A stretch of DNA of 64,000 nt from a virus, in IMG/VR virus record IMGVR_UViG_3300033149_002817, positions 1 through 64,000 of that record; one strand, written 5' to 3'. The notes under the pieces were generated by a model. It was not told the origin of the DNA. It did not search any database and saw only the letters and a program-made list of their open reading frames with translations. Shown here piece by piece: positions 1 through 31,298 of the stretch. The position numbers and the translations under genes are program-made. Position 1 is the stretch's first letter; every line of letters starts with the position of its first letter.

Positions 1-543
1 ACGCATCTGCGCTGCGCGGAGATCGCGGGGCAGAAGACCATCCTGCTCAAGCCGACCACGGACAGCCGGGCGTTGCAGCTCGTGAGCACGCACGATGGGC
101 TCACGAAGCCGGCGACCGAGGTGGACCCCACCGAGGCGCTCTCTCCGACTGCGCTCGCGAAGTACGACGTCATCGGCATCGACGAGGGGCAGTTCCTCGA
201 CGGGATGTGGATCGACGTCATCGAAGACCTCGCCGACGGTGGTACCGAGGTCATCGTCGCCTGTCTCAATCAGGACTTCCGTGGTAACCCCTTCGGTATC
301 GCACCGCACTTGATGGCGATTGCGGACCGCATCGAAGCGCTTCGCGCGGTGTGCGTGGACTGCGGGAAGAAGGACAGCGCGACGCGCAGCTATCGCACGT
401 CCGAGGGTGATGATCAGGTAGAGGTCGGTGGCTCGGAGCGCTACATTGCGTTGTGCCGTCCGTGTTGGGTGGACAGGTGGGCAGAGCGACAGCGGGATGG
501 CGAGGCCGCCCCGCGCGCGACACAAGCTCAGGCGGCTGTGTAG
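1..543 (+). CDS. tk: Thymidine kinase, class II, 5' end outside window
   Basis: Phosphorylates thymidine to dTMP for phage DNA synthesis. The frame is open from base 1, so the N-terminal P-loop lies outside the window; about 180 residues are visible. Seen: the Walker B-like DEGQFLDG, the lasso/substrate region LNQDFRGNPFG, and two Cys pairs (CVDCGKK and CRPCW) that form the structural zinc site typical of type II enzymes. The last 20 residues are a polar, Ala/Arg-rich tail. The family identification is firm. It lies about 30 bases upstream of the large acidic protein gene and is the only nucleotide-metabolism gene in the window. Confidence 0.93.
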   Translation, partial: THLRCAEIAGQKTILLKPTTDSRALQLVSTHDGLTKPATEVDPTEALSPTALAKYDVIGIDEGQFLDGMWIDVIEDLADGGTEVIVACLNQDFRGNPFGIAPHLMAIADRIEALRAVCVDCGKKDSATRSYRTSEGDDQVEVGGSERYIALCRPCWVDRWAERQRDGEAAPRATQAQAAV

Positions 544-574
544 AATAGGCGTACCGCTTGAGAAGGAGCACACG

Positions 575-3500
575 ATGGTCAACCTCGCGCAGTACCTCGC
601 CGGCAGTGTATCGCTCGAAGAGCTTGAGGAGTCGCTGCCCGTCAGCGGGGCCGGCGGCTTGATGCTGCCGAAGCCGATGACGACGCGGCACGAGAGGCTG
701 CAGCTCGCATGGCAGGATTTCAGCACGAAGCTGGAAGCCCTGTGGCTCGACGTGATGGAGACGTCCGAAGAGCTGTACATCGATGCCGCGCAGACCATCG
801 ACGAGCTGCGCAACGTCGGCTTTCAGAACCCGCGGCACGGGGTGCCAATCTTCAAGCGCTTGCAGCAGAAGGTCGCTGCGTACGCGATGAAGCCGAGCGA
901 AGAGCAGAATGCCATCCAGGTGATTGCCGCACGTCTCGGAGCGCTGAACGCTGAGCTTCTCTACATCTGCGACGAGCACGACCCGCAGATGCCGAAGCCT
1001 CCGGAGCTGCCCGCCCGCGACATGAAGACGTGGCAGAAGGATAGCGGCGTGGAGCGCTTCCCCGGCGAGCTGGGGATGTCTGATCCCGGCATCGAGGGGA
1101 TGGAACCGGAGCCCGACGACGAGGATTTGCCTCAGGATCAGCAGGTTATCTCGGCGGAGCCCGGCGAGGAGCCCGAGGGGGAGATGCCGCCCGAAGGCGA
1201 AGAGGTGCCGGGCGAGGAGCCCGACGAAGACGAGGTGCCCTACGATGCCGCCGAAGAGGAACCACAGGATGCGGAGGGAGAGCTTGCAGGAGAGGATGGA
1301 GAGGATCCGCTGGCTCCTGGGGACGAAGAGGAAGGCGCCCCGGTCGAGCCTGGTATGGAGGATCCTGACGGTGGTGAGGTGGCTCCTGAGGATGGAGAAG
1401 AGGAAGCCCCCGACGTCGAACCCGGCGAAGCACCCGACGAGGTTCCCGGAACAGAGCCCGAGCTTGCGCCTGAGCCCGGAACAGAGCCCGAGCCCGGAGT
1501 AGAGCCCGACGCCGAAGCTCCGCCCGGGGCCGAGCCCGGCGAAGAGGAGCCCGAGGCACCTCCCGAGAAGGCGGCACCGGATGGTGAGGAGCCCGAGGCG
1601 CCTCCTGAGAAGCTGAAGCCGGAGGATGGAGCGCCCGAGCCACCGTCGGGCATGGAGCCCGAGGGGATGGAGCCCGAGGGGATGCCGAAGGAGAAGCCCG
1701 AGGTACCGCCGAAGGAGAAGCCCGAGGTACCGCCGAAGGAGAAGGGCGACGAGAAGGGCGAGAAGCCCGACATAGCTCAGGTCGCGGACAAGGAACGGGG
1801 AGACGCGGACGACGCGAAGCAGGACTTCGCCGACGCGGCAGCGAAGACCGACGACGAGGAAGGGGAAGCAGAGGAGGTCGAGGGCGACCCGAAGGCTTCC
1901 CCGGAGAAGAAGGCGGACGAGAAGGACGACGTCGAGCGCGCGAAGGGTGAGGAGGTCGACGCTGCGGCGGAGGTCGAGGGTGAGGACGACGAAGCCGACT
2001 CGGCGGAGCGGTCGCTCGGGCAACAGCCGCGTGACTGGGACACCGACCGCCTGAAGAAAGCCTACGATCAGGTCAAGTCGGACCTCGGGGGCAAGGTGCC
2101 CGCGGACGAGATGCCGAAAACACCTGAGGAGCTGATCCAGCTCATCGCGCCCGACGACGGCGACGCCGGCATCATGCAGCAGGGAGCCGACGCGGACACG
2201 GGGAAGGTTGACCCGCAGCTCGCGCAGTACCTGCAGCGCGAGATCAAGAAGGGCACGCTTGGGAAGGAGCCCGACGAGGATGAGCAGCTCGGGGCTCCGC
2301 CGTCGAAGCCGAAGTCGAAGATGCCCCCGCCTGGGAAAGACATCAAGGCGGCGATGAAGATCAAGGCGAAGCGCAAGCCGGGTCGCCGGATGGAGGGGGA
2401 GCCGAAGCTCGGGGAGACGGTGAAGGCAGCTGACCCCGCGAAGGTGGATCAGGACGAGCTGGCGATGGGCACGAAGGAGGAGATGGAGCACACGACCGAC
2501 GTGAAGGTCGCGGAGCGCATCGCCTTGGAGCACCTCGCTGAAGACCCGAGCTACTACAGCAAGCTCAAGAAGGCCGGACTTGCGGAGTTCTACCGCTCTC
2601 CCGACTACTTCGGGCCGAAGGCGGAGCAGTACCTCGACGAAGTAGCGCTCGACGAGCGGGGCCTGCCCGGGGCCATGAAGGCAAAGAAGGTGCTCAAGCG
2701 TCTGCTCAAAGCCGGATGGGAGATCATTCGACAGACCGGATCGCACAAGATCCTGAAGAAGGCCACGAAGACCATCATCTTCGCGTTTCATTCAGGCGTC
2801 GAGATCGGCCGCCGGATGCTCGCGAAGCTGCAGAAGCAGACCGGCGTGAAGTTCATGGAGAACTACGCGGCGGTTGACGCTCTGCGCTACGCCATCGTCG
2901 AAGAGCAGGGTGACGTGGAGGCGTCTTTCCAGCTGGCAGCGGAGACGATCGCGGAAGCCGTGCGGCGCTACACTGACGCGAGTGATGTTCGTGGGGAGTT
3001 GGGCGTGGTTGCTCCCGGGCGTCCACCGTCCATCAACGTGTTCGCGGAGTGGCGGAGCAACGGCCGCCCGAGCGACAGCTTCGGCTTCACGCGTGTCATC
3101 CCGATCGAGGGGGCGGTGTACTTCGCGAACGCAGACGGCGTGGTCAGCGAGTCGTGGGATATCGACGAACACATCACGAACACGGAACTCGCGAACCGCG
3201 TATATGGCGCTATGAGCGAGGTTTACGACGTCTGCCCGACGCGCGTGACAGAGGATGAGAGGGTCGTACCGGCGCTCTACCGCGTCATGGAGCGAGAGCA
3301 GCGCGGAGAGAGCATCTCCGGCTACGCCTACGGTGGACTCCTTAACAGCCTTCGTTCGTCGCTGAGCATCGCAGAGGGTGTGGCTACCGCGCCTCAGCGC
3401 ATCCACGTGACGATGGCAGGCCCGCGCCGCTACTACTTCGAGTGGACGGTCCCGGCCCCCAAGAAGATCCCCGCTGTTGTGGGGACACCGGACGGCATGC

Positions 3501-4243
3501 TTGCTGAGATGCAGGACGTGCTTGGCGCTGGAAAGCTGGCGCTCAACGAGGACGCGACGGTCACGCTCGGCGGCGCGAGGGTGGGCCTCCTGAAGCATCG
3601 CCCGATGACGCCGGAGACCGTGCGGCAGGTCGCGATGTTCAAGACGCCGACCCGGGCTCAGTTCGCTGCGGGGAAGCTCGGAAGCGACTGGACTCCGGTT
3701 CACGTCTACGTTGACGACGGGTCGGAGGGCTGGGTCGTCGGCGACAAGCGGAAGGACGCGCTGTCGAAGATCGGAGCCCGGCGTATGGGTGTTGAGGAGG
3801 GGGTCATCGGGCTCTCTGCAATAGGTGGTGCCGCGTCTACGGTGTGGTGCTCACCGCCGATCAGCATCTCTCCGTCAGAGGGCTCCGTGCTGATCGGCGA
3901 CTCCGTGCTCGACAGGGACTGCTCCGATAGGGCGTTTGCCGATATCATCTCGACGCTCTCCGAGCAGCAGGACGACACGGCACACGGCTACCTGTTCGAG
4001 GACGGCCCCACCGTCCAGGTGGATCGCAAGACGCGCCTACGTGTGCAGGAGACGGGTGTGGGCGATGTGCTGGTGTCGCCGCTCGACGAGGACGAGGACG
4101 AGAGGATCCGGGAGGCGAAGGCGGCGAAGCAGAAGCTCGACCCGTACGACGTCATTCGTGCAATCGCGAACATGGAGTTCATCCCGCGTGGGCCGTTTGC
4201 GGTCCTGAGGGTGAAGCGTCACGGGACGGGACAAGGGAAGTAG
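575..4243 (+). CDS. Large acidic virion-associated protein with embedded HicA-like domain
   Basis: 1222 residues, function unknown. The ATG at 575 follows AGAAGGAG, and is preferred to an upstream in-frame GTG at 428 that overlaps the kinase gene. Seen in order: a helical N-terminal part (1-160); a Pro/Glu/Gly-rich acidic low-complexity region (about 170-400); a charged region to 600; the motif KLGE (611-614); LDE (692-694), followed at once by a module (about 701-765) resembling HicA/YcfA mRNA interferases, with KRLLKAGW, then GSHKILKK, then a FHSG strand; and a long C-terminal region of unknown fold. HicA is normally a free toxin of about 60 residues. The LxE motifs fit T4-type prohead protease sites. 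Inference: an internal or head-associated protein processed during assembly. Confidence 0.85.
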   Translation: MVNLAQYLAGSVSLEELEESLPVSGAGGLMLPKPMTTRHERLQLAWQDFSTKLEALWLDVMETSEELYIDAAQTIDELRNVGFQNPRHGVPIFKRLQQKVAAYAMKPSEEQNAIQVIAARLGALNAELLYICDEHDPQMPKPPELPARDMKTWQKDSGVERFPGELGMSDPGIEGMEPEPDDEDLPQDQQVISAEPGEEPEGEMPPEGEEVPGEEPDEDEVPYDAAEEEPQDAEGELAGEDGEDPLAPGDEEEGAPVEPGMEDPDGGEVAPEDGEEEAPDVEPGEAPDEVPGTEPELAPEPGTEPEPGVEPDAEAPPGAEPGEEEPEAPPEKAAPDGEEPEAPPEKLKPEDGAPEPPSGMEPEGMEPEGMPKEKPEVPPKEKPEVPPKEKGDEKGEKPDIAQVADKERGDADDAKQDFADAAAKTDDEEGEAEEVEGDPKASPEKKADEKDDVERAKGEEVDAAAEVEGEDDEADSAERSLGQQPRDWDTDRLKKAYDQVKSDLGGKVPADEMPKTPEELIQLIAPDDGDAGIMQQGADADTGKVDPQLAQYLQREIKKGTLGKEPDEDEQLGAPPSKPKSKMPPPGKDIKAAMKIKAKRKPGRRMEGEPKLGETVKAADPAKVDQDELAMGTKEEMEHTTDVKVAERIALEHLAEDPSYYSKLKKAGLAEFYRSPDYFGPKAEQYLDEVALDERGLPGAMKAKKVLKRLLKAGWEIIRQTGSHKILKKATKTIIFAFHSGVEIGRRMLAKLQKQTGVKFMENYAAVDALRYAIVEEQGDVEASFQLAAETIAEAVRRYTDASDVRGELGVVAPGRPPSINVFAEWRSNGRPSDSFGFTRVIPIEGAVYFANADGVVSESWDIDEHITNTELANRVYGAMSEVYDVCPTRVTEDERVVPALYRVMEREQRGESISGYAYGGLLNSLRSSLSIAEGVATAPQRIHVTMAGPRRYYFEWTVPAPKKIPAVVGTPDGMLAEMQDVLGAGKLALNEDATVTLGGARVGLLKHRPMTPETVRQVAMFKTPTRAQFAAGKLGSDWTPVHVYVDDGSEGWVVGDKRKDALSKIGARRMGVEEGVIGLSAIGGAASTVWCSPPISISPSEGSVLIGDSVLDRDCSDRAFADIISTLSEQQDDTAHGYLFEDGPTVQVDRKTRLRVQETGVGDVLVSPLDEDEDERIREAKAAKQKLDPYDVIRAIANMEFIPRGPFAVLRVKRHGTGQGK
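1655..1744 (+). repeat. Short in-frame tandem repeats in the acidic region
   Basis: A 15-base unit (GAGCCCGAGGGGATG) occurs twice, at 1655-1669 and 1670-1684. It is followed by a 24-base unit encoding KEKPEVPP that occurs twice (1684-1707 and 1708-1731) with a partial third copy to 1744. All are multiples of three, so length changes by slippage would keep the frame. Confidence 0.85.
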
Positions 4244-7654: not shown

Positions 7655-10141
7655 ATGCGACCGGAGCATCTCGACGTCATTCTTGAGCGTGTCGGTGCGG
7701 CGATGCAGGGCAACGCTGTAGCCGAAGCGCAGCAGAGCGTCGATGAGGTAGACAGAGGCTTCGAGTCGTTTGAGGAAGGCACGCGGGCGGAGCAGTTTCG
7801 CTGCAAAGCGCTGTTTTCTGGGGGTGGGTCTGGCTCTGGTAAGGGTTTTGTTCTGGACAACACCGTCCGCGGCCTCGGGCTTCGTATCCTCAACTCCGAT
7901 GACGTCCTTGAGGCGCTTGCGGCAAGCCCGGTCACGCGTGAGCGCTTGCAGAAGAAGCGCGACGCGAAGGGTGCAGAGGGCGACATCACCGGGAAAGGCT
8001 ACGGTCGTCGTGGCGCCGTGATCGACCTCAAGACCGAGCTGATGGGCAAGTTCGTCCAGAAGGAGCTGCGCCCCTACTCGAAGCGTCGGTACAAGAACAA
8101 AGCGCATATGACGATGGACCGCCGCAACGGTCTCGTCTTCGACGTGACCGGTGCCAACCTCGGGACCATCCAGAAGTTCTATAAGGAGCTTACTGAGCGG
8201 GGTTACGACTGCGGGATGATCTTCGTCAGTGTGAAGATTCCGACTGCGCAGACGCGTGACCTCAAGCGTAAGCGTTCGCTCGGCCCGGAAGAGGTCGAGA
8301 AAGTTCACATCAAGGCTAACGCCAACGTCTCGAAGCTGGCTCAGCTGTTCGGTGCGGAGAATTTTCGCATCGTGGTGAACGAGAATGTCAGGGGTACGAA
8401 GCGGCCGACGGCGAAGAAGGACCGCTCCCTTCCCGAGGCAATCCGTAGCGGCGCGACGATGATGCGTGCTGTCAAAGGGCGGAAAGCGCAGCAGCAGGCT
8501 ACGGTCAGCTCCGACCAGTGGACCATCAACCAGCAGCTCATACTGCAGAAGTTCAAGGACGCTCGTAGTTGGGCGACGAAGTGGCTCAAGAGGCCCATCC
8601 GGAACCCCGTCGGCAAGGCGTACCTTGCGAGCCTGAAGGAGGCGGTTGCCGCGGACGCGGGGCTCGTCGAGAAGGCGGAGATGTACGTCGTCTACCGCAA
8701 GGACGGCACCGGCTTCATCTACGAGCAGATGTTCTACGACCAGCTGACTGCTCGGGCGTTCGCACGTCGCATCAAGGGCTCCGTCATCATGGACCCGGCG
8801 AAGGTGCCCGACAGGATCGGCAACCTCTCGCAGCTCGGCGGGAGCGTGGTCGAGGGGGCGGGGGTGCTCAACGAGTGGGGGTATCGGCAGCAGCGTCGCA
8901 CGAAGACCCTCAGCCGTCCGGCCGACGAGATCGCGAAGGCTCTCTCGTTTGAGGCCGCTGTCGTGTTGTTCGGGAGCACGCAGTTCAAGTCTCCCAAGTA
9001 CAAGCTCGCGCAGGAAAGCTTTCGTCTACGCATCTCGAAGGCTGAGTGGGAGAAGGGTCGTAAGGAGCTGACGGGTCACGGCATAGCCAACAAGGCGGGG
9101 AACGTCACCTACAAGCTCGCAACTCCGGTGCGCACCGAGTTGGAGAAGATCGTCGGGGCGCGGACGGACTTCCGGCTTGGGATGGCGCTGACGAAGCACT
9201 ACAACCGCTCGAAGGCGTTCATGGGCGACCCGTGGGATAATGCCGAGAAGCGTCGGTTCGACCTGAGGGACGGTCACTGGTACAGCACCGGCGACTACAA
9301 GCCCCTCCCGGAGGCGGCCGACATCGACGAGCGCGGCTACAAGGCCAACCCGAAGGCATACGCGCAGGCGATGGCGAAGGCCGGAGCGAAGCCTTCCCGT
9401 GTTTGGTTGACCGTCGCAAACCTCGTGCAGTCGGCGGCGAAGAAGATGGGGAACGCTGTTCGCAACATGTCAGACGAGAAGGAGCGTGCCGCGTCGCTCG
9501 GACCCCTGAACACGATTCTGGACCTGACCGATGTTTCTATGGCTACTCAGGCATCGCGCTCGCATCGTGCTGAGACGGTCAAGCAGGTAGCTGCAGCGCG
9601 GGACGCAGCGCAGCGTAGTGGTTCACCGCTCTACTCCGCGCTCAACGACCTCTATCGCAAGATCCGCGCGACGACGTACAACGAGTCGGCCGAAGACCTC
9701 GACGAGTTCTTCTGGCGGAAGCGCGACAAGGGCAAGTTCGCGGCGAAGGGGCAGGGTCAGGAGCCCGCGCCACGCAAGAAGGTACGCTCGAACATCGCCA
9801 GCGACGACTACGCGAAGGCGCTTGCTCAGGCGAAGTCCGACCCGCGCTACAAGGACGAGCTGAAGCACAAGCTCGCGAAGGCGGAGAGCGCGAACGACCG
9901 CACCGGCGTCGAGCTGACGGAGCCGGCGGGACTCGTCAAGCCCGGTCAGGAAGGCGAGTGGAAGCGCGCGAAGGCGGCAGCTTCCCAGCAGTACCCGGGC
10001 ATGGAGGCGAAGGACAAGGACCGCTTCTACGCCGTCACGAACACGATCTTCGGATCGATGACCGGGCGGAGGAAAGAGGAGAGCATGACAGAGCGCACTG
10101 CCAACCTCCTCACCGAGCGGATGACCGGCATCCGGGGGTAG
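7655..10141 (+). CDS. Zeta-toxin-like P-loop kinase with C-terminal assembly module
   Basis: 828 residues. Residues 50-240 look like a zeta-toxin/AAA_33-type kinase: Walker A GGGSGSGKG (56-64), ILNSDD (79-83) and a later FDVTGAN. Such kinases phosphorylate UDP-sugars or other small substrates; the substrate here is unknown. The C-terminal part (about 557-700) carries IDE-RGYK followed by PKAYAQAMAKAG and YSALNDLYRK, a module also present in the prohead protease-scaffold at 28674. The N-terminus HLDVILERVG also contains an (I/L)xE motif. Four bases separate it from the next giant gene. Inference: packaged or head-associated kinase processed at I557-D-E559. Confidence 0.8.
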   Translation: MRPEHLDVILERVGAAMQGNAVAEAQQSVDEVDRGFESFEEGTRAEQFRCKALFSGGGSGSGKGFVLDNTVRGLGLRILNSDDVLEALAASPVTRERLQKKRDAKGAEGDITGKGYGRRGAVIDLKTELMGKFVQKELRPYSKRRYKNKAHMTMDRRNGLVFDVTGANLGTIQKFYKELTERGYDCGMIFVSVKIPTAQTRDLKRKRSLGPEEVEKVHIKANANVSKLAQLFGAENFRIVVNENVRGTKRPTAKKDRSLPEAIRSGATMMRAVKGRKAQQQATVSSDQWTINQQLILQKFKDARSWATKWLKRPIRNPVGKAYLASLKEAVAADAGLVEKAEMYVVYRKDGTGFIYEQMFYDQLTARAFARRIKGSVIMDPAKVPDRIGNLSQLGGSVVEGAGVLNEWGYRQQRRTKTLSRPADEIAKALSFEAAVVLFGSTQFKSPKYKLAQESFRLRISKAEWEKGRKELTGHGIANKAGNVTYKLATPVRTELEKIVGARTDFRLGMALTKHYNRSKAFMGDPWDNAEKRRFDLRDGHWYSTGDYKPLPEAADIDERGYKANPKAYAQAMAKAGAKPSRVWLTVANLVQSAAKKMGNAVRNMSDEKERAASLGPLNTILDLTDVSMATQASRSHRAETVKQVAAARDAAQRSGSPLYSALNDLYRKIRATTYNESAEDLDEFFWRKRDKGKFAAKGQGQEPAPRKKVRSNIASDDYAKALAQAKSDPRYKDELKHKLAKAESANDRTGVELTEPAGLVKPGQEGEWKRAKAAASQQYPGMEAKDKDRFYAVTNTIFGSMTGRRKEESMTERTANLLTERMTGIRG

Positions 10142-10145
10142 TGCG

Positions 10146-13100
10146 ATGCCCGAGCTGACCGAACGACAGGAAGTTCTCGACGACGCCGCGATCAAGCGGA
10201 TGCGGAAGGACTACCTGATGCTGATGCGGAACATCGACCGCGTCACGTCTCCGCGGGCGCACGCGGTCCTGAAGAAAGGCGCGAAGACCTTCGCTCAGCA
10301 CCTCGTAGAACTCATCGTCGGTGACTGGTTCGACACGGCCGACGCGCCTATCAAGACGATCCTCCTGAAGCACAACGTCCCGGAGCGGGAAGCGAAGGCG
10401 GTGCAGCAGCTTGCTCAGAAAGCGCTGTACATGCTGGAACACGAGCTGACGATGATCCCGGATTGGCAGGATTGGGGGGAGGCGTCGCGCAAGGGGGCGA
10501 AAGCGTCAGACTCAGTCCGATGGCGGAAGCGGGTCGATAAGCACGCTCGTCAGGTCTGGAAGGACTTGGACTACGTCTCCAAGTACGTCAAGCGCGTCAG
10601 CGGGTCCACGCCGGTCGTCGGGAAGGCAGAGACGAGCTTCGACGTCGCGGGCATCCCGGTTCGCGTCACGGGGACGCTGAAGTACCCGGATGCGTTCCGT
10701 ACGGGGATGAAGGACGCGGTTCAGCGGATCAAGAAGGTACTCCCGTGGGCGATGCGGTACCGCCTCCCGGTACAGATCATCGACATGGACATGAGGGCAG
10801 ACGGCACGTACAACCGTGCAACGAAGCTCATCCGTATGTCGCACTGGTTGCACGAACCGCGCCGCGTGTCTCAGGTGTACGTTCACGAGATGGGGCATCA
10901 CCTCTGGCAGCAGCTCGGGCAGGACGCGAAGGACTACTACCGCGCGGCCGGGAACGCGAACGCGAAGAAGCTGAGCGTCCGCAAGCTGCTCGATGAGTGG
11001 CCCGAGGGCGCTCTCGGTCTGCTCGGGTACGCGAGGCAGCTTGAGAACTCTGATCCCATCCTCTCCGTGCAGCTGCAGTCGATCGAGATGGGTTACGCGT
11101 CGCGCTCTGCGTCGGACAAGACAAGCCTATTGACGCTTCTCGATCGTGGTGTAGAGCACATTACGGTCGACGGGCACCCGGTGACGTACTACGCCGCAAA
11201 GAACTCGGAAGAGAACTTCTGCGAGGTACTCGGGGCGCTCATCTCGTTCGGTCCGCGCACCGTTCACCCGCTCGTCAAGGCGCTCATGAAGCACGTACTC
11301 GGCTCCCGCTTGAAGCTCTCGGAGGCGACGATGGACACAACCGCGCCCACGAAGGCTCCGTGGCATTCCTGCACGGATTGCGACTACGGTATTCCCAAGT
11401 ACGTGGGCCGCTACCCCCAACATTGCCCGAACTGCGGATGCAAGCTCGGGGGCCAGTCGGGCTACCCGAGCATGAAGCGGCGCCTCCCGACGCGCACCGC
11501 GGACCCGGGGCCGGGCATTCCCCTTGAGGAGCGCGCAGCCTTCGAGGCGTGCATGCACGACGTAGCGCGTGGGGTGAGCTTCCCCGGCGTCACTTACACG
11601 CTCACGGAGGGCGGCGTTGCGGCGTTCCGCTACGCGCCCGACCACCTCGCGATCACGCCGACGGTCATCCGCGTCTCGCTCGACGAGGTCAGCATCCCGG
11701 CAGTCGAGGCGGAGGTCATCAAGCTCGCCGAGACGGTCGACACGCTGATGGTTGATAGCGCCATCGATGAGGGCACGCTGTCAGAGAGAAGGCAGGCCGT
11801 ACTGTCGACGAAGCACTTCGACAAGATGCGCACCGAGTGGAAGCGTATGTTGAAGCCACTCTTCACGAAGGGGCGCGGTACGCTTGAGACCGAGGCGGCG
11901 GACTCCGTCTACGCGGGAAAGTTCGAGGAGTTCGTGCGGGCGTCGTTCGAGTTTCTGGCGCACGAAGTTCCGGTTCTCCCTTCGTTGATATGGTGGTACG
12001 AAAAAGCCGACAACATCACGGGGCCGGCGAAGGCGATAGCGGATAAGTTCGCGGGCGCTTACCTGTGGTCCGAGACGTTCTACAAGCGCAAGTCTGTTCG
12101 TCCCGCGGAGGACTACAAGAAGTTCTACGGAGGCAAGGCGGAGAAGTTCCTGGAGATGTTCGTGAAGCTCCGCAGGGCTGTCGAACACTCGGGGTTTACG
12201 CTCGACAGCTGTAGGCTTATGGGAAAGGCTTCGACCCGCAACATCGATCTCGACATCAAGTACAACAACGTCTTTCGTGAGCACCTTTGGAAACTGTGGC
12301 AGGAACGCGACCCGAGCAGCTTCGATAAGAACGTGAAGAACTTCTTCGCCGGCCCGCACGACGAATCTGCACGTGAGCCGATGGCGGAGTACGCGAAGAC
12401 GCTACCTCGCGAGCTGACCGACTTGAAGTACCAGGACGTTGAGACGAGGCACGTAGACCTTGAGCACGCGGGGAAAGCGGTTCTCGCGAAGCTCGACAAG
12501 GTTCTCAAGTTCTTGAAGGGTGGCGTTGCGACTGCGAGCTATCCCGAGTACATGATGAAGCAGATCGCTACGCAGAACCTCGGTCGTGAGAAAGTGCGTG
12601 GTGAGAAGCTTGCGGTAACGGCGGACGTCGTGCGCGGGAACGACAACGTCGCCGGCTTCCGTGTCGAGAACGACATAGGGCTTCCGCGTCACGCTTGGGA
12701 GAGCTTTGCGAAGGTAGTAGCTCTCGTAGCACGTGGGTTGAAGCGTAAGGGTCTCGGCTTCCTCATCAAGCGCGTGGTCGTTCACGTCAAACCAAAAACC
12801 ATGCGCACGTTCACCGTCAAGGATACTGGAGAGAAGAGCCTGTATGGTGGCTCCTACAACCTGTCTCCCGGGTACGACATGTTGGATCTCAAGTATGGAA
12901 TGAGAACAGATCCGAGTTCAAAGCAGAAGCTCAGTAAGAGCACGCCGACGGCGAAGGGCAAGGGCGTCGTCGTCATGAACTACGACACCGCCAGCATACC
13001 GTCTGAGCAGGACGTGGCGCGCATCTTCACACACGAGATCGGGCATCACTACTACTTCGCTTTCCTGCCGCCGAAGGCTCGCGCCGCCTACCGGCACTTC

Positions 13101-16100
13101 TTTGGTTTGGCAACCAGCTTCCCGTCAGCCTACGCGAAGAGCCAGGCGATCGAGGACTTCGCCGAAATCTTCACGGCATGGGTGCTGAAGGGCACTGGGC
13201 TGATGAAGACCGGCGAGTACAAGCCGCTCGACGACGACATGATGCAACGCTTCCGCGGTGCGATTCGTCTCGATCCGGCCGCGAAGGGCGTCAAGCTCGC
13301 CGAAACGGTCGGCACGCTGATGGTGGACGACGTCACCGATGAGGACATGCTGCTCGACCCGCGCACGAAGCTGCCGGTCCCGTCGGCGGAGCCGCTTGCA
13401 GAGAGGGCGGCGCTGTCGACCACGTTCTTCAACAAGGTGCGGACCCTGTGGAAGCAGGAGCTGAAGCCGCTGCTCATGAAGGGGCACGGCACGACGCACA
13501 CCGCGGACGAAGATGACGCGGCGGCATCCGGCTTGAAGTCGTTCTCGGCGACGGCGTTTGCGTTTCTCACGCATGAGGCTCCGATCCTGCCTACGCTTTC
13601 ATGGTGGTACGACGACTACACAAGCAAGGCTGCGCTGACGGCCATCCATGACAAGTTCGCCGGGGAGAACCTGTGGTACACCAAGATGCGTGGCGATGCG
13701 GACAAGTTCTACGCGGATAAGGCGAAGCGCTTCACCGAGCTATTCCAGCAGTTCCGCGAGGCGCTCAACAGCGGGTTGACGCAGCTGCAGTATGCGAAGG
13801 GCTCGACGCGTCCGCAGGTACTCGCTTACTTCGCGAAGCAGGCGATGAGCGACAACGAGCAGCGCAAGAAGGCATGGGCGTTTTGGAAGCGGGCGCATCC
13901 GAAGCGCTTCGCGCGAGAGACTGCCGTCTTGGACGGACCGATGGATGAGACGCAGGATCATCTGTTCATCGACTACATGATCGAGATGTTCAGGGAGCAG
14001 ACACGCTCTGCACTCGACGACTCCGATCGCCGGCACACAGAGCTGAAGACCGCGGGCGACGTCATCCTCAGCTCGATCGACGTGCTCTTCAAGTTCCTGA
14101 AGGACGGCATCGCTACGTCCGGCTATCACACGGGCGCGCAGGCGGAGATCGCGCAGAAGTTCCTGGGCCGGGACGTGAAGAAGGGCGAGAAGCTCGCGGT
14201 TACGAGCGACGTCGTGCGTGGGAACGACAACGTCGCCGGCTTCCGTGTCGAGAACGACGCCGGTTTGGAGAAGTCCACTTGGGAGGGCTTCTCCAAGGTG
14301 TTGGCTCTCATCGCTCGCGGGCTGAAGCGCAGAGGGCTGGGCTTCTTGGTGAAGCGCGCGACCGTGACCGTTCGCCCGCGCAAGGGGAAGACGGTCAACG
14401 TGATGGCGACCGGCGATGACTCGGCTCAGGGGGGCTCCTACAAGTTTGGCGGGCTTGACGCTCCTTCGGCAACGGCTCCTGCGAAGGCGCGGCCGTACCG
14501 TCCGAGCAGCCCGACGACTACGGGGAAGGGCGCCATCTCGCTGTTCGTTGACGAGGTGTACCGGATGCCCGCGCGCGACATAGCGGTCGTCTTCACGCAT
14601 GAGCTTGGGCACCACTACTACTTCGCCTTCCTGCCGCCGAAGTCGCGTGAGGCGTACAAGGTCTTCTTCCAGCGTGCGACGAGCTTCCCGACCGCGTACG
14701 CGAAGAACAACGCAGGCGAGGACTTCGCCGAAATCTTCACAGCGCTGGTGCTGAAGGGCACCGGATTGATGAAGACGGGTCACTACAAGCCGCTCGACAA
14801 CGACATGATGCAGCGCTTTAAGGCTGCCATCGACATGGACCCGAAGGCGAAGAGCGTCAAGCTGGGCGAGTCCTTCGAGGAAAGTCTCTGGGAGCGCGTG
14901 AAGGATTCGCTTGGGATGCCGCGCTCCAAGATGCCGCAGATTCGCTCGGATCTCGTGCCGGAGTTCCTGGAGTTCCTGGGCGGGAACGACGTCAAGGTCA
15001 CGCGCAGGACGATGCCGGCAAACCGTCTCAAGCCGACGCAGAACGAGCTGAACAAGTCGAAGCTCGACTACATGGTGACGAAGGGGGTGAAGCAGCTTCT
15101 CAAGCCGATGATCGTGTCGTCTGACCACTACGTCCTTGACGGACACCATCGGCTTGGCGCTCTGCGGGTGAAGAATCCGAAGGCAGAGGTGCCGGTCATC
15201 GTGGTCGACCTGCACATCATGCGGCTGCTTCAGGTCGCGCACAAGTTCGCGAAGGTCGGGTACAAGAAGCTTAGCGAGGCGATCGGCGGACCGAACCCGG
15301 TTCCGACGGTGAACCCGAAGGCGGACTCGGCGGACGTCCCGGTTGCTCCGACGGACAGCACCGGCGTCGGCTCGTCGTTCAACGCAGCGCTTGGCGTGAA
15401 CGAAGCGGAAGGCATCTTGCAGAGGCTCAAGAGCAAGACGAAGTTCGTGCTCAAGGTGCTCCGGAACGCGAAGATCGGCTTCGCGAGTGTGACGCCGACG
15501 GCTCGCGCCGACAACCCGGCCGACAAACCGCTGCAGCTCAACTTCTTCAGCCCGCAGATGAAGCCGAACCCGATCCCGCACATCTACGTCGCGAACGCGG
15601 CCGACGCTTTCCGTCAGCTGCTCGGGCTGGGCATCCGGGAGCCGCAGCTCGCCGTCCACATGGTGACGGAAGCGGCGACGATGGCGTTCCTTCGTGACGC
15701 GTGGCTGCTGGAGAGCAAGCGTACGAAGTACAAGTCGGCCATCGCGGTCGTCGTGAAGAACCGCGTGAAGGGGCCGGCGGAAGTGCTCATCGGCAAGGCG
15801 TCGGACACCGGAGACGACCGCACCGGTACGTGGTGTCTCCCTGGCGGGGGCATCTCCCCGGACGACGATGACGAGCACGACGCCGCCGCGCGCGAGGCGT
15901 GGGAAGAGATGGGTGTCACGGCAACGCCCACCGGCAAGAGCGTCGAGATGCCGGGGCGGCCGGGCATCATCTTCTGCTACCTCGATTACGTCGAAGGCGA
16001 CCCGAAACCGAACGCGGAGTTCACGGCGGCGAAATGGCTGCCGGTCGCGGACGCGTGGAAGACGAAGGGGCTCTACAGCACGACGGAGCCCCTCATTCAG

Positions 16101-16640
16101 CGCCTCAGCGGCGAGATGAAGGTGACGGAAGCTTTCCCGACACGTAAGAGCAAGCCGGCGAACACGGGCGGCCGGTCGCTCGTCGGCGGGGAGCCGGCTG
16201 CGACGGAAAAGAAGCCCGGCAACAGCTTCGAGACGGACGACAAGAAGGACAACGCCTTCGACCCCGCGGACCGCGACAAGACGGGGACCGTATCGCAGGA
16301 CGACGCGCGTGCGGAGAAGAAGCTCGACATGCCGGATCAGGCGAGCGACGAGCTTGACCCGGCGGAGAGCGACGAGATGCAACAGGACGGACAGCAGCCC
16401 GGCGAGGAAGGACCGCCGCAGCCGGGGCAGCCGGCGACTCCGACCGGGCCGAAGAGCATCATGTTGCGCTTCCCTGACATGTCGATGGCGTCTGACGCTG
16501 ACCAGTGGTTCAAGTCAATGAACGTCGATACGCAGCTTGACGGTATCGAACTCACGGCCACAGCTAAGGATGCGACCGATCTGGAGGTCATTTCTCGTAC
16601 TGCGACAGCGTACGGGTTGGAGCTTTCGGACGCGGCGTAG
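10146..16640 (+). CDS. Giant multidomain protein: three metalloprotease-like modules, ParB-like, Nudix
   Basis: 2164 residues. Seen in order: HEMGHH zincin motif (247-252); zinc ribbon with CTDC and CPNC (409-430); two tandem copies of a module of about 520 residues (530-1053 and 1054-1575), each with a zincin motif (HEIGHH 963-968, HELGHH 1485-1490) followed by YYFAFLPPK; a ParB/sulfiredoxin-like segment with VLDGHHRLGALR (about 1663-1674); and a Nudix domain (about 1855-1975) with GGGISPD and REAWEEMGV. In the Nudix box Asp replaces the usual first Glu. The module borders coincide with KLAE (526-529), KLAE (1050-1053) and KLGE (1572-1575), possible prohead-protease sites. An acidic tail follows. 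Inference: a virion-packaged polyprotein cut into several enzymes. The combination is unfamiliar to me. Confidence 0.88.
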   Translation: MPELTERQEVLDDAAIKRMRKDYLMLMRNIDRVTSPRAHAVLKKGAKTFAQHLVELIVGDWFDTADAPIKTILLKHNVPEREAKAVQQLAQKALYMLEHELTMIPDWQDWGEASRKGAKASDSVRWRKRVDKHARQVWKDLDYVSKYVKRVSGSTPVVGKAETSFDVAGIPVRVTGTLKYPDAFRTGMKDAVQRIKKVLPWAMRYRLPVQIIDMDMRADGTYNRATKLIRMSHWLHEPRRVSQVYVHEMGHHLWQQLGQDAKDYYRAAGNANAKKLSVRKLLDEWPEGALGLLGYARQLENSDPILSVQLQSIEMGYASRSASDKTSLLTLLDRGVEHITVDGHPVTYYAAKNSEENFCEVLGALISFGPRTVHPLVKALMKHVLGSRLKLSEATMDTTAPTKAPWHSCTDCDYGIPKYVGRYPQHCPNCGCKLGGQSGYPSMKRRLPTRTADPGPGIPLEERAAFEACMHDVARGVSFPGVTYTLTEGGVAAFRYAPDHLAITPTVIRVSLDEVSIPAVEAEVIKLAETVDTLMVDSAIDEGTLSERRQAVLSTKHFDKMRTEWKRMLKPLFTKGRGTLETEAADSVYAGKFEEFVRASFEFLAHEVPVLPSLIWWYEKADNITGPAKAIADKFAGAYLWSETFYKRKSVRPAEDYKKFYGGKAEKFLEMFVKLRRAVEHSGFTLDSCRLMGKASTRNIDLDIKYNNVFREHLWKLWQERDPSSFDKNVKNFFAGPHDESAREPMAEYAKTLPRELTDLKYQDVETRHVDLEHAGKAVLAKLDKVLKFLKGGVATASYPEYMMKQIATQNLGREKVRGEKLAVTADVVRGNDNVAGFRVENDIGLPRHAWESFAKVVALVARGLKRKGLGFLIKRVVVHVKPKTMRTFTVKDTGEKSLYGGSYNLSPGYDMLDLKYGMRTDPSSKQKLSKSTPTAKGKGVVVMNYDTASIPSEQDVARIFTHEIGHHYYFAFLPPKARAAYRHFFGLATSFPSAYAKSQAIEDFAEIFTAWVLKGTGLMKTGEYKPLDDDMMQRFRGAIRLDPAAKGVKLAETVGTLMVDDVTDEDMLLDPRTKLPVPSAEPLAERAALSTTFFNKVRTLWKQELKPLLMKGHGTTHTADEDDAAASGLKSFSATAFAFLTHEAPILPTLSWWYDDYTSKAALTAIHDKFAGENLWYTKMRGDADKFYADKAKRFTELFQQFREALNSGLTQLQYAKGSTRPQVLAYFAKQAMSDNEQRKKAWAFWKRAHPKRFARETAVLDGPMDETQDHLFIDYMIEMFREQTRSALDDSDRRHTELKTAGDVILSSIDVLFKFLKDGIATSGYHTGAQAEIAQKFLGRDVKKGEKLAVTSDVVRGNDNVAGFRVENDAGLEKSTWEGFSKVLALIARGLKRRGLGFLVKRATVTVRPRKGKTVNVMATGDDSAQGGSYKFGGLDAPSATAPAKARPYRPSSPTTTGKGAISLFVDEVYRMPARDIAVVFTHELGHHYYFAFLPPKSREAYKVFFQRATSFPTAYAKNNAGEDFAEIFTALVLKGTGLMKTGHYKPLDNDMMQRFKAAIDMDPKAKSVKLGESFEESLWERVKDSLGMPRSKMPQIRSDLVPEFLEFLGGNDVKVTRRTMPANRLKPTQNELNKSKLDYMVTKGVKQLLKPMIVSSDHYVLDGHHRLGALRVKNPKAEVPVIVVDLHIMRLLQVAHKFAKVGYKKLSEAIGGPNPVPTVNPKADSADVPVAPTDSTGVGSSFNAALGVNEAEGILQRLKSKTKFVLKVLRNAKIGFASVTPTARADNPADKPLQLNFFSPQMKPNPIPHIYVANAADAFRQLLGLGIREPQLAVHMVTEAATMAFLRDAWLLESKRTKYKSAIAVVVKNRVKGPAEVLIGKASDTGDDRTGTWCLPGGGISPDDDDEHDAAAREAWEEMGVTATPTGKSVEMPGRPGIIFCYLDYVEGDPKPNAEFTAAKWLPVADAWKTKGLYSTTEPLIQRLSGEMKVTEAFPTRKSKPANTGGRSLVGGEPAATEKKPGNSFETDDKKDNAFDPADRDKTGTVSQDDARAEKKLDMPDQASDELDPAESDEMQQDGQQPGEEGPPQPGQPATPTGPKSIMLRFPDMSMASDADQWFKSMNVDTQLDGIELTATAKDATDLEVISRTATAYGLELSDAA

Positions 16641-28222: not shown

Positions 28223-28674
28223 TCGGCCGACGCGCGGCACGACCGGCGACTGCGTTCATCGACCCGAAGGCGAAGAGCCAAGGTCGCCGACCGCATCAGA
28301 GGCATGAAGGGGTGTATCTTTTCAAGCGTGCTGCGCACGACACGACCATCGACATGTACGAGCCTCCGACGGCGGACGGCTTTGTCGAGAGCTACGTGCT
28401 GGAGCACTTCGACGCGGAGCTGCTTCTGGCGATCGTGCTCAAGCTGACAGAGCAAGAGATCATCGACTTGATGGACCGCTTGTACAACTTCCGCGCGGTC
28501 ACGTTCAACACGCGGACACGGGCTATCGTCGTGCGACGTGACACGTGGGCGCGGCCCCACAACGAGGACTTGCTCGCTCTGCCTCCGGTTGACGTGTCGG
28601 AGCGTCTCGATCGGTCGCTTACCGGACTTGTGAGTCACATGCAGGCGCTCGCGCCACAGAAGGAGACAGCGTGA
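28219..28674 (+). CDS. Small protein upstream of prohead protease (151 aa)
   Basis: ATGA overlap with the previous gene. Basic N-terminus, then a helical acidic stretch (SYVLEHFDAELLLAIVLKL, EQEIIDLMDRLY). No enzyme motif. In T4 the gene before the protease is a small core protein; a similar role is possible here but rests only on position. Confidence 0.6.
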   Translation: MIGRRAARPATAFIDPKAKSQGRRPHQRHEGVYLFKRAAHDTTIDMYEPPTADGFVESYVLEHFDAELLLAIVLKLTEQEIIDLMDRLYNFRAVTFNTRTRAIVVRRDTWARPHNEDLLALPPVDVSERLDRSLTGLVSHMQALAPQKETA

Positions 28675-31298
28675 TGCAGGTGCTCGACGGTCGCAACCTC
28701 TACGAGAACGGGACGAGCCTCGGGCTGCTTCAGCTCGAAGAGGGTCAGCGCTCCAACAAGATGATCATCATCGAGCGCTTCTCGGGCGAGTGGTGCGATC
28801 TCAAGCAGGTCGAGCTGACGGAGATGGACCGGACGAACGCGTCGCAGCTCTTCGAGGCCGGCGGAAACAAGGCCCCTCGCATCCTCATGGCGATGGAGGG
28901 GCGTTTTCAGGCGTCGGACATGAAGAACGCGAACGGGCGGATCTACCCCGGGACCATCTGGGAGAAGATCATTCCGAACGCCGGCACGTCGCCGGTACTC
29001 GGCCGCATCGCTCGCGGGGAGATGCTCGGCGAGGTCGATCACCCCGGCGACGGGCAGACGCTGCTCAAGCGCGTCGGGTGCATGACGACGAACATCCTGC
29101 GCGAAGGCAGCGACGTCCGCGGGCGGATGATCGTGTTCGACACCGCGGTCGGCCGGGATGTGAAGGCCATCGTTGAGGGCGGCGGACGTGTTGGCGTCAG
29201 CTCGCGGGGACAGGGGAGCGTCGTCCGGCTCGAAGGTACGGACGTCGTGCAGGACGATTACCAGCTCGAAACGTGGGATGTCGTCCACAATCCGAGCACG
29301 CCGGGAGCCTACCCGGACATCACGATACAGGAGAGCGCGGCGCCGTCGCAGCCGCAACAGGAGGAGCGGATGGGCATGCTGGCGGACCTCCGGGAGCGGT
29401 TCGAGAGGCTGAAGAAGCATATCGAGGGGCCGGATGCTGACCTCACGGAGAGCGTCTTCACGATCCTCAACGACGAAGCGAAGGGGATGGCGACGGAGCT
29501 GACGGAGGGCAAGTTCGGGGGCTCGCCCGCGGAGGTCGCCGCCATCGCTGCCGACGTGCAGTATTTCCTCAACCGCATCGGGCAGCTGCGCGCGAACCCG
29601 ATCAAGGGCATCCCGCTCGGCGAGGAGGACGACCCGCTGCCGACGGCCGCCGCGACGGGCGGAACGGTGCAGCTCGCGGAGAGAGACTACAAGGGCGACC
29701 CGAAGGCGTACGCGAAGGCGATGGGAAAGGCGCAGAAGAGGGCGGGCATCAAGACGCTGAGCACCGACGTGAGCACCGGGCCATTCTCGGACGCTCGGTC
29801 GAACGCTATTTGGGACGCGCGGATGGAACTGGAGGATGTGCTTGGTCTATGGCACCCGATCACGAAGAAACTCAGGGTGATCTACGACGCCTTGAAGATG
29901 CAAGGCGGTTCGTCCTCGAAGAAGGAAAAGGCGCTGAAGGATTTGGCGCGACTCCGTGATAGTGCACAGCGTGCTGATGGCGACGAGGGTAAGGTTTACT
30001 CTGCTCTCCGTGATGCCTACCGCCGGGCTCGCGCGTCGATGTACAACGAGGCTCGCATGGGGGCTCACGCGGGGCAGAACGAGCCGGGGCGGGACTGGGA
30101 TGACGCAGGTGACGTCGAGGACGTCCGCGCCCGCTTCAAGGGCAAGCCGAAGCGTACGCCCGGTCGCCACAAGGCGGACAAGGCGCTCGTGAAGGGCGCA
30201 GCGAAGCAGCTTGCTCGGTACAACGAGAACGACGACGACGATGACGATACGGAAGAGGAGTGCAACGAGACTTTCCAGCGTGCAACGACCGCGGGTGAGA
30301 CGGTCGAGGTTCTGGAGAACGTCGCCGGCCTGCGCGAGAAGGCGCTGACCGTGCCGATGACCCGCTTCGTTCATGAGGCGCGCAAGGCGTACCGGGACGC
30401 GGCGCAGGTCGATGGCATGATCCATCGGCACGAGCTGGACGGCATCTCTTCCTTCGTGCGGGACACCTACGAAGCGGTCGAGAAGGACGAGATCACGGAG
30501 ACGATGGAGACGCCCGCCGGACGGCGGCGCTTGGAGATCATCGTTCCCAACGCGGGCAAGCTCGACGAGAACACGAAGCAGCTGGTGGCCCCCATCGGCG
30601 GACTCACGCAGACGGCGCCGGGCCGCTACCACACCTCGGTGCCCATCGACAAGGTCAGCGACGTGCTGGAGAGCCTTGCGCGTGGGGGCATGTCTCTCGT
30701 GTACACCGAGTCGACCGAGGCTTTCGACGACGCGGCGGAGCGCTTTCAGCCGCTGCTCGACAGGCAGATGAGCCTCACGCAGGCAGCGCTCACCGAAGCA
30801 GCGACGGGTAAGGCGTGGGTCACGGAGATGTCCGCGATCATCGCCAACGTGAAGCAGGCGATGCAGATGCTCACGGAGAAGGCTCGCGAGCGCGGTGCGG
30901 CGCTGCAGGAGACGGAGAAGAAGGTCAGCGCAGCTACGGCTCTCATCGAAGCGTTCGCTCGTGAGTTCGGCGTTGAGCGGGTTCGCGGTGCGGTGCAGGC
31001 GGTCGCTCAGCTTCATCCGAGCGCCAACGCGCTGCCGGAGAAGCTCTCGGAGGCCCGTAGCGTCGAGGACTGTGTCAGGCTGACACGTGGGGAGGTGTAC
31101 CTGGAGAACCTGCCCATCGTCGAGCGGAACGAGACGCGCATCACGGAAGCGGTGCAGACGTCTCAGCGCGCGAGACAGAAGCGCATCGAGGAGAGCGCGA
31201 AGAAGCCCGGAGCGGGCAGCTTCAAGCGCAGCATCGTCGAGACGACCGAGCAGGTTGTCGGAGCGATGGACAAGAAGTACGGCCGGAAGGATCGGTAA
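28674..31298 (+). CDS. Prohead protease (T4 gp21-like) fused to scaffold core
   Basis: 874 residues; start ATG 28674 or GTG 28671 after AAGGAG. Residues 1-235 are a gp21-type serine protease: NANGRIYP, then GEVDHP with the catalytic His (123), then GRVGVSSRGQGS with the catalytic Ser (176 or 177), then WDVVHNPSTPGAYP. Residues 236-874 form a scaffold: charged, helical, with a run of Asp (DDDDDD) and a long C-terminal coiled coil. VQLAE (332-336) is followed by RDYKGDPKAYAKAM, the same module as in the 7655 kinase, and may be a self-cleavage site. In T4 the protease and scaffold are separate genes (21, 22). The capsid gene follows. Confidence 0.9.
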   Translation: MQVLDGRNLYENGTSLGLLQLEEGQRSNKMIIIERFSGEWCDLKQVELTEMDRTNASQLFEAGGNKAPRILMAMEGRFQASDMKNANGRIYPGTIWEKIIPNAGTSPVLGRIARGEMLGEVDHPGDGQTLLKRVGCMTTNILREGSDVRGRMIVFDTAVGRDVKAIVEGGGRVGVSSRGQGSVVRLEGTDVVQDDYQLETWDVVHNPSTPGAYPDITIQESAAPSQPQQEERMGMLADLRERFERLKKHIEGPDADLTESVFTILNDEAKGMATELTEGKFGGSPAEVAAIAADVQYFLNRIGQLRANPIKGIPLGEEDDPLPTAAATGGTVQLAERDYKGDPKAYAKAMGKAQKRAGIKTLSTDVSTGPFSDARSNAIWDARMELEDVLGLWHPITKKLRVIYDALKMQGGSSSKKEKALKDLARLRDSAQRADGDEGKVYSALRDAYRRARASMYNEARMGAHAGQNEPGRDWDDAGDVEDVRARFKGKPKRTPGRHKADKALVKGAAKQLARYNENDDDDDDTEEECNETFQRATTAGETVEVLENVAGLREKALTVPMTRFVHEARKAYRDAAQVDGMIHRHELDGISSFVRDTYEAVEKDEITETMETPAGRRRLEIIVPNAGKLDENTKQLVAPIGGLTQTAPGRYHTSVPIDKVSDVLESLARGGMSLVYTESTEAFDDAAERFQPLLDRQMSLTQAALTEAATGKAWVTEMSAIIANVKQAMQMLTEKARERGAALQETEKKVSAATALIEAFAREFGVERVRGAVQAVAQLHPSANALPEKLSEARSVEDCVRLTRGEVYLENLPIVERNETRITEAVQTSQRARQKRIEESAKKPGAGSFKRSIVETTEQVVGAMDKKYGRKDR

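What the first reader, a model, noticed from the sequence alone, without database searches (positions are those of the whole stretch)
10146..16640. 2164-residue protein joins three zincin motifs, a zinc ribbon, a ParB-like and a Nudix domain
HEMGHH, HEIGHH and HELGHH, the CxxC pairs, VLDGHHR and the Nudix box are all visible in one open frame. I know of no described phage protein with this set. With KLAE/KLGE at the module borders it could be a polyprotein giving several enzymes, possibly delivered to the host to degrade proteins and sanitise or alter nucleotides.
Basis: partly seen in the sequence, partly recalled or inferred. Interest (0 to 1): 0.85.

Follow-up and report, generated by a model that had tools for sequence, protein, structure and literature searches.

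The report
Phage head cargo polyprotein with cut sites
A giant virus-of-bacteria gene strings together at least five enzyme-like modules, and every module border carries the short signal that head-building proteases of T4-type phages cut, so the protein probably works as one precursor that is chopped into a cargo of effectors inside the phage head and injected with the DNA.

Summary
The 2164-aa frame is real, and so are all the motifs named. Modules: a phage-specific zincin (1-392), a zinc ribbon (~394-529), two zincin modules that are 47% identical tandem copies (530-1053, 1054-1575), a ParB/Srx-fold module (1576-1711), an unassigned stretch, a Nudix domain (~1860-1985) and an acidic tail.

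The strongest new fact: [LI]xE followed by A/S/T occurs exactly six times, and all six lie at module borders (shuffles average 0.15 there, maximum 3 in 20,000). L/I-x-E is the published cleavage rule of the T4 prohead protease gp21. The window encodes a gp21-type protease (Peptidase_S77, 8e-17) and a gp23-type capsid protein.

Related phages carry ParB, zincin or kinase modules in other giant proteins, with border tags of their own (ES[LVI][DE]E, 17 versus 0.25-0.35 expected). The tag follows the phage, not the module. In Dickeya phage LIMEstone1 the stand-alone ParB orthologue is a mass-spectrometry-confirmed virion protein.

Best explanation: a polyvalent head-cargo polyprotein cut by the prohead protease. 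Polyvalent proteins (2017) and T4 internal proteins/Alt are known; segmentation of a multi-enzyme cargo by prohead-protease-type sites was not found in the papers searched. Cleavage, packaging and activities are inferred, not shown.

The parts
10146..16640 (+). 2164-aa multi-module head-cargo polyprotein gene
   Evidence: ORF list and translation; coding GC3 throughout
10146..10163 (+). MPELTE, possible N-terminal propeptide ending in LTE at residue 6; compare T4 Alt, cut at ITE-6
   Evidence: sequence; Alt sites from PMC5694885; one relative (L033) has LTE-R at the aligned place; inference, residue after the cut is R not A/S/T
10164..11324 (+). zincin module 1 (residues 7-393), HEMGHH 247, candidate third ligand E356 or E360
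   Evidence: model pLDDT 84.5; best PDB matches are gluzincin aminopeptidases, E 0.011 and above
11325..11732 (+). zinc-ribbon module (residues 394-529), CxxC at 409 and 427
   Evidence: 58% identity over 26 aa to a 102-aa protein of related phage G009; no significant Pfam hit
11733..13304 (+). zincin module 2 (residues 530-1053), HEIGHH 963, E1003 / E1007
   Evidence: 47% identical to module 3; relative in a 1670-aa polyprotein
13305..14870 (+). zincin module 3 (residues 1054-1575), HELGHH 1485, E1525 / E1529
   Evidence: invariant HExGHHY and E..AE among 6 relatives; fold not resolved (pLDDT mostly below 50)
14871..15278 (+). ParB/Srx-like module (residues 1576-1711), DGHH 1665
   Evidence: pLDDT about 86-98 over the module core; PDB ParB-N, Noc and sulfiredoxin, probability 0.98-1.0
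15279..15713 (+). unassigned stretch (residues 1712-1856)
   Evidence: no Pfam hit
15714..16637 (+). Nudix domain with REAWEEMG box and acidic tail (residues 1857-2164)
   Evidence: Pfam NUDIX 3.1e-15; pI 4.5
11313..11324 (+). border site KLSE|A
11721..11732 (+). border site KLAE|T
13293..13304 (+). border site KLAE|T
14859..14870 (+). border site KLGE|S
15267..15278 (+). border site KLSE|A
15705..15713 (+). border site LLE|S just before the Nudix domain
28671..31298 (+). 875-aa prohead protease fused to a long C-terminal region; predicted to do the cutting
   Evidence: phrog_207 4e-37; Pfam Peptidase_S77 8e-17; aligns with T4 gp21, GVSSRG and HP motifs kept
31344..32735 (+). major capsid protein, gp23 type
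   Evidence: phrog_138 1e-59; aligned with T4 gp23
7655..10141 (+). 828-aa protein with Zeta-like kinase domain, 4 bases upstream; shares a 140-aa segment with the prohead protease; the same kinase is fused to the ParB module in three relatives
   Evidence: Pfam Zeta_toxin 5.8e-6; 34% over 140 aa, 5e-11; fusions
428..4243 (+). 1271-aa protein with DUF5661 and HicA domains and one KLGE|T site
   Evidence: Pfam about 1e-11 each; site at 661

Best explanation
The gene encodes a precursor of head cargo. The chain is taken into the prohead; the phage's gp21-type prohead protease cuts it after [LI]xE at the module borders (391-393, 527-529, 1051-1053, 1573-1575, 1709-1711, 1854-1856, perhaps also after LTE-6), releasing about seven products of 44, 15, 59, 58, 16, 15 and 33 kDa. 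These stay with the packaged DNA and are ejected into the host, where the zincins act on proteins, the ParB/Srx domain on DNA or nucleotides, and the Nudix on a nucleotide-type substrate. Shown here: the frame, modules, duplication, ParB fold, sites at all borders, protease and capsid type. Inferred: cleavage, packaging, ejection and activities.
For: Exactly six [LI]xE|[AST] sites, all at module borders. Five KL[AGS]E versus 0.20 expected. L/I-x-E is the published gp21 rule, and T4 Alt is cut at ITE-6 and LTE-619 (PMC9026906; PMC5694885). gp21-type protease and gp23-type capsid protein encoded in the window. Related phages G009 and G010 (capsid protein 33% identical) carry pairs of giant proteins (1987+2503 and 2314+2619 aa) with 17 ES[LVI][DE]E-type tags per phage against 0.25-0.35 expected, nearly all in those giant proteins and one in the G010 protease; ends of local alignments between them lie within 8 aa of a tag in 32% versus 11% of random positions. 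ParB flanks are enriched in [LI]xE on contigs with gp23-type capsid genes (p 0.03 outside the domain) and not on contigs without. Some stand-alone ParB relatives start with sequences like MKKFKSYISE or MKFSQFLTE, similar to T4 IPII/IPIII MKTYQEFIAE. The ParB orthologue of LIMEstone1 (149 aa, 17.30 kDa) matches the 17.31-kDa virion protein found by MS with 35.57% coverage = 53/149. The kinase-gene neighbour shares a segment with the protease. Most predicted products are basic, as described for T4 internal proteins (PMC9026906).
Against: No peptide evidence for this phage. The [LI]xE rule is short: 18 copies occur in the protein and many in other proteins; the raw number of [LI]xE|[AST] is not unusual (6 versus 3.3 expected, P 0.11), only its placement is. 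Borders were set by hand with the sites known, and two borders stem from one duplication. The N-terminal LTE has R at P1'. The ParB flank effect is modest, and the IxE at the end of the ParB domain in T4-type phages may be part of the domain. No KL[AGS]E in the capsid protein (its candidate sites are MLAE|S and SIDE|T). About half of the short stand-alone ParB relatives, the LIMEstone1 one included, lack a clear targeting-like start.
Confidence: 0.62

Rival explanations
1. Packaged and ejected as one uncut chain (as phage N4 virion RNA polymerase), with the KLxE borders being plain linkers spread by duplication.
For: N4 vRNAP and plasmid polyvalent proteins travel uncut (PMC5512222). Two of the six borders come from one tandem duplication.
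Against: The same small-residue-after-E rule recurs at non-duplicated borders and before the Nudix domain; relatives have independent repeated tags with the same LxE logic; a dedicated LxE-type protease is present.
Confidence: 0.15
2. The zincin modules themselves process the chain (self-cleavage), as proposed for polyvalent proteins such as P1 DdrB.
For: Iyer et al. propose zincin-driven processing (PMC5512222); three zincins in the chain.
Against: The borders carry a glutamyl motif that is the known rule of the prohead serine protease; in the ESxDE-tagged chains of G009/G010 that were scanned no zincin hit appeared, although the search was limited.
Confidence: 0.1
3. Intracellular multi-enzyme protein made during infection for host takeover, not a virion part.
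For: ParB-like genes of Aeromonas phage 65 and Vi01-type phages lie among non-structural genes; Nudix and Zeta-like enzymes are often cytoplasmic.
Against: Located in the same-strand region leading into the head genes; the orthologous ParB protein is in LIMEstone1 virions; capsid-targeting-like starts in some relatives.
Confidence: 0.13

Closest known systems
Polyvalent proteins of phages and conjugative elements (Iyer et al. 2017, PMC5512222), e.g. P1 DdrB, N4 vRNAP
   Same: Several unrelated activities in one chain, zincins (up to five per chain), ParB/Srx domain, phage late-gene context, predicted transfer with DNA.
   Different: There processing is ascribed to the zincins; here each border carries a prohead-protease-type site and the phage has the matching protease. 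This exact domain set was not listed in the passages read.
T4 internal head proteins IPI-III and Alt (gp21 substrates)
   Same: gp21-type protease, gp23-type capsid protein, L/I-x-E sites, basic modules, predicted ejection; Alt is cut at both ends.
   Different: T4 cargo is made as separate genes with one targeting peptide each, not as a chain of many modules.
SPN3US / phiKZ ejection proteins processed by AXE-type prohead proteases
   Same: Large packaged cargo cut by the head protease after x-x-E motifs.
   Different: Mostly N-terminal propeptides are removed; no chain of distinct enzymes freed from one precursor in the passages read (PMC10052503, PMC5694885).
LIMEstone1 17.3-kDa virion protein
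   Same: 35% identical to the ParB module over 127 aa; MS-confirmed virion component.
   Different: Stand-alone gene, no fused modules.
1670-aa protein of contig IMGVR_UViG_3300017971_000201
   Same: Zincin like modules 2/3, RLAE, SLTE and GLTE sites, gp23/gp21-type head genes; DUF5661 as in the window's 1271-aa protein.
   Different: UvrD helicase and 2H phosphoesterase in place of ParB, Nudix and ribbon.

Membership tests
Polyvalent protein | Two or more domains of unrelated activity in one phage chain | tested here: met
Polyvalent protein | Zincin of one of the 12 polyvalent clades or DdrB-type ParB | not tested
   published alignments not available; only fold and motif level checked
Polyvalent protein | Transferred into the recipient cell | not testable with these tools
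   needs virion MS or an injection assay
T4-type internal head cargo (IP/Alt-like) | gp21-type protease and gp23-type capsid protein in the same genome | tested here: met
T4-type internal head cargo (IP/Alt-like) | L/I-x-E cleavage-type sites flanking mature parts | tested here: met
   actual cleavage not shown
T4-type internal head cargo (IP/Alt-like) | N-terminal capsid-targeting peptide ending in L/I-x-E | tested here: inconclusive
   MPELTE|R, only six residues, no MKTYQEF-like sequence
T4-type internal head cargo (IP/Alt-like) | Present in the virion | not testable with these tools
   orthologue of one module is in LIMEstone1 virions
Zincin metallopeptidase | HExxH plus downstream Glu ligand | tested here: met
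   invariant in relatives; metal binding not shown
Zincin metallopeptidase | Zincin fold | tested here: inconclusive
   module 1: pLDDT 84.5, gluzincins top the list but best E 0.011 and low TM-scores; module 3: low confidence
ParB/Srx superfamily | ParB/Srx fold and conserved DGHH(R) core | tested here: met
Nudix hydrolase | Profile above cutoff and REUxEExG box | tested here: met
   56.8 bits versus cutoff 21.1; REAWEEMG in sequence, first Glu of the box is Asp
Zinc ribbon | Two CxxC knuckles and ribbon fold | tested here: inconclusive
   both CxxC present; no significant profile hit
Peptidase S77 (T4 gp21), for 28671-31298 | Profile above cutoff and catalytic motifs | tested here: met
   61.8 bits versus cutoff 27; HP and GVSSRG motifs aligned with T4 gp21

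The most novel reading that the evidence does not exclude
T4-superfamily phages of several uncultivated lineages keep large head-cargo polyproteins (about 1700-2600 residues, up to roughly 20 modules) whose modules are framed by a lineage-specific prohead-protease tag. Tag and module are independent, so any effector can join the cargo by landing between two tags, and huge phages without a gp23-type capsid run a parallel system with another tag (VVARY).
Probability: 0.45. Interest if true: 0.82.

Novelty: new variant of a known kind. Interest (0 to 1): 0.62.

Why it matters
How phages load and release many injected effectors is known from only a few models. If borders of giant head proteins are protease tags, then (1) the products of otherwise unreadable giant phage genes can be predicted, (2) many unknown small domains between tags become candidate anti-defence or takeover effectors, and (3) the prohead protease gains a new role as the maturation enzyme of injected cargo, like animal-virus polyprotein proteases.

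Tried and rejected
Whole-protein search for relatives with the same full architecture: only an identical contig was found. Bacterial chromosomes: no relative of zincin module 1. PDB sequence searches gave nothing significant. Combining rows of the second zincin family with ParB rows misaligned them, so module 3 was folded with few relatives and came out low-confidence. The idea that the acidic C-terminal ~65 residues are a shared head-targeting domain was not supported. Raw frequency of [LI]xE|[AST] is not enriched (P 0.11); only placement is, so frequency was dropped as an argument for this looser pattern. The capsid cleavage site of T4 (FLTE-65) does not align exactly with the window's SIDE|T, so that correspondence is not claimed. 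Literature searches for a head polyprotein cut by a prohead protease found none, within an open-access library only.
Full report
1. Observation. The ORF at 10146..16640 (+) is 2164 aa with coding-type third-position GC along its length. Modules 2 and 3 (530-1053 and 1054-1575) are tandem duplicates, 47% identical over 544 columns, each ending in KL[AG]E; module 2 follows a KLAE|TV and module 3 follows another KLAE|TV.

2. Modules. Module 1 (1-392) belongs to a phage-specific family: 18 further viral loci, 22-29% identical over most of the module in nearly all of them, mostly on large contigs. In a 14-row alignment HEMGHH and K-N-x-EE-x-FCE are invariant. Its model has mean pLDDT 84.5, and the PDB list is headed by gluzincins (aminopeptidase N family, IRAP, LTA4 hydrolase, M61), but weakly: best E 0.011, low TM. 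No relative was found in GTDB genomes. Modules 2/3 share HE[IL]GHHYY and ED-FAE with a few viral proteins; a profile comparison with module 1 aligns only the HExxH helix, and the fold of module 3 stayed unresolved. The ParB-like module has more than 500 viral relatives and is modelled with high confidence; its PDB matches are ParB-N, Noc and sulfiredoxin with probability 0.98-1.0. The Nudix domain is above the Pfam cutoff. The zinc ribbon rests on CxxC spacing and one short match. Residues 1712-1856 and the acidic tail are unassigned.

3. Borders. KL[AGS]E occurs five times against 0.20 expected, and none of 5000 shuffles reaches five. More generally, [LI]xE followed by A, S or T occurs at 391, 527, 1051, 1573, 1709 and 1854, all six within 8 residues of a module border; shuffles average 0.15 such border hits, maximum 3 of 20,000. 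The other twelve [LI]xE have R, L, P, W, G or V next. L/I-x-E is the published rule of T4 gp21 (PMC9026906); T4 Alt, an ejected enzyme, is cut at ITE-6 and LTE-619 (PMC5694885). The window protein begins MPELTE|R, and a relative (L033) has LTE|R at the aligned place. Caution: the borders were set by hand with the sites known, and two come from one duplication.

4. The protease and the head. 28671-31298 encodes a Peptidase_S77 (8e-17) alignable with T4 gp21; 31344-32735 is a gp23-type capsid protein; tail sheath, tail tube and baseplate genes follow. The upstream 828-aa gene has a Zeta-like kinase domain and shares a 140-aa segment with the protease (34%, 5e-11).

5. The same design elsewhere. 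Contigs G009 and G010, whose capsid proteins are 33% identical to the window's, encode adjacent giant proteins of 1987+2503 and 2314+2619 aa. The first of each pair holds the ParB module (43-44% identical to the window's) and a Zeta-like kinase. In each phage 17 [ED]S[VLI][DE]E tags are found against 0.25-0.35 expected, nearly all in the giant proteins (plus a 575-aa protein in G009) and one in the G010 protease. The ends of alignments between the G009 and G010 chains fall within 8 aa of a tag in 32% versus 11% of random positions (the tag definition there was slightly wider). Contig G001 has a 1670-aa chain (UvrD helicase, 2H phosphoesterase, zincin of the module 2/3 kind, DUF5661) with RLAE|G, SLTE|D and GLTE|A, and gp23/gp21-type genes. 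An 802-aa chain (L067) joins ParB, a cytidylyltransferase-like domain and the kinase, with TITE|A and LLSE|G between them. ParB-module flanks carry more [LI]xE than the rest of the same proteins on contigs with a gp23-type capsid gene (20.6 versus 11.0 per 1000, p 0.03, domain end excluded), but not on contigs of 30 kb or more without one (5.0 versus 9.1). Window-type KL[AGS]E is not enriched in G009, and the ES-tag hardly occurs in the window (2 versus 0.6): the tag goes with the phage and not with the module.

6. Virion location. Several stand-alone ParB relatives begin with sequences such as MKKFKSYISE and MKFSQFLTE, close to the T4 IPII/IPIII leader MKTYQEFIAE read from the T4 record. In Dickeya phage LIMEstone1 the orthologue (35% identical over 127 aa) is annotated 'confirmed structural protein'; its computed mass of 17.30 kDa and 53/149 residues fit the published MS row 17.31 kDa, 35.57%, five peptides (PMC3296691). 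The paper's ORF number for that row is off by one from the record.

7. Mechanism. The best-supported reading is a cargo precursor cut by the prohead protease (0.62). Cleavage, packaging, ejection and catalysis are inferred. Rivals are intact packaging (0.15), an intracellular enzyme chain (0.13) and self-cleavage by the zincins (0.10).

8. Known or new. Polyvalent proteins (PMC5512222) already combine zincins, ParB and other domains and are thought to be injected; T4 IPs, Alt and SPN3US ejection proteins are cut by head proteases. I found no paper in the open-access library that joins the two ideas. Hence: new variant of a known kind, with a wider reading (tag-framed cargo polyproteins as a general system) at about 0.45.

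Noticed in passing
G006:C1:30001-70000 (L141, L142) and G007:C1:45001-85000 (L139, L140): Large-phage contigs with no gp23-type capsid hit carry another repeated peptide, V[VL]AR[YF] (for example RVVARYLEAA, QKVLARYTQ), at N-termini, C-termini and module borders of neighbouring genes around the module-1 zincin: 10 versus 1.2 expected in G006, 5 versus 1.9 in G007. Possibly the tag of another head-processing or targeting system.
   Followed up: partly
L127 and L136 (G009, G010), giant ORFs of 1987, 2503, 2314 and 2619 aa: Chains of many small unknown domains separated by ES[LVI]DE|A, with modules in partly different order in the two phages.
   Followed up: partly
window 428-4243: 1271-aa protein with long acidic Pro/Glu-rich N-terminal half, one KLGE|T, then DUF5661 and a HicA toxin-like domain; DUF5661 also sits at the end of the 1670-aa chain of L012.
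   Followed up: no
window 7655, 21708, 24160 (N-termini): Three head-region proteins start with similar short stretches HLDVILE|R, FIDVLQLAE|R, FIDVFDLIE|A, perhaps this phage's capsid-targeting sequence.
   Followed up: no
window 7655-10141 and 28671-31298: The kinase protein and the prohead protease share a 140-aa segment (34%, 5e-11); function unknown, possibly core binding.
   Followed up: no
L108 and L100: Multi-domain phage proteins with KYSEDQERDDHGRF-like repeats (L108) or HPRAxNGQF-like repeats (L100) between modules, another inter-module tag in phages without gp23-type capsid hits.
   Followed up: no
L034 7883-11236; L029 9737-11884: Module-1 zincin fused to Nudix plus eukaryotic-type topoisomerase IB (1118 aa), and to Nudix plus a second zincin-like segment (716 aa): zincin and Nudix recur together.
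   Followed up: partly
window 41526-46079: 1517-aa protein with M14 zinc carboxypeptidase and Kelch repeats in the tail region.
   Followed up: no
window 47223-50330: Tandem paralogues of about 255-265 aa, three of them 45-79% identical.
   Followed up: no
L004 8483-13681 (genome 88483-93681): UDG domain fused to family A DNA polymerase, with intein-type insertions carrying LAGLIDADG and HNH endonucleases.
   Followed up: no
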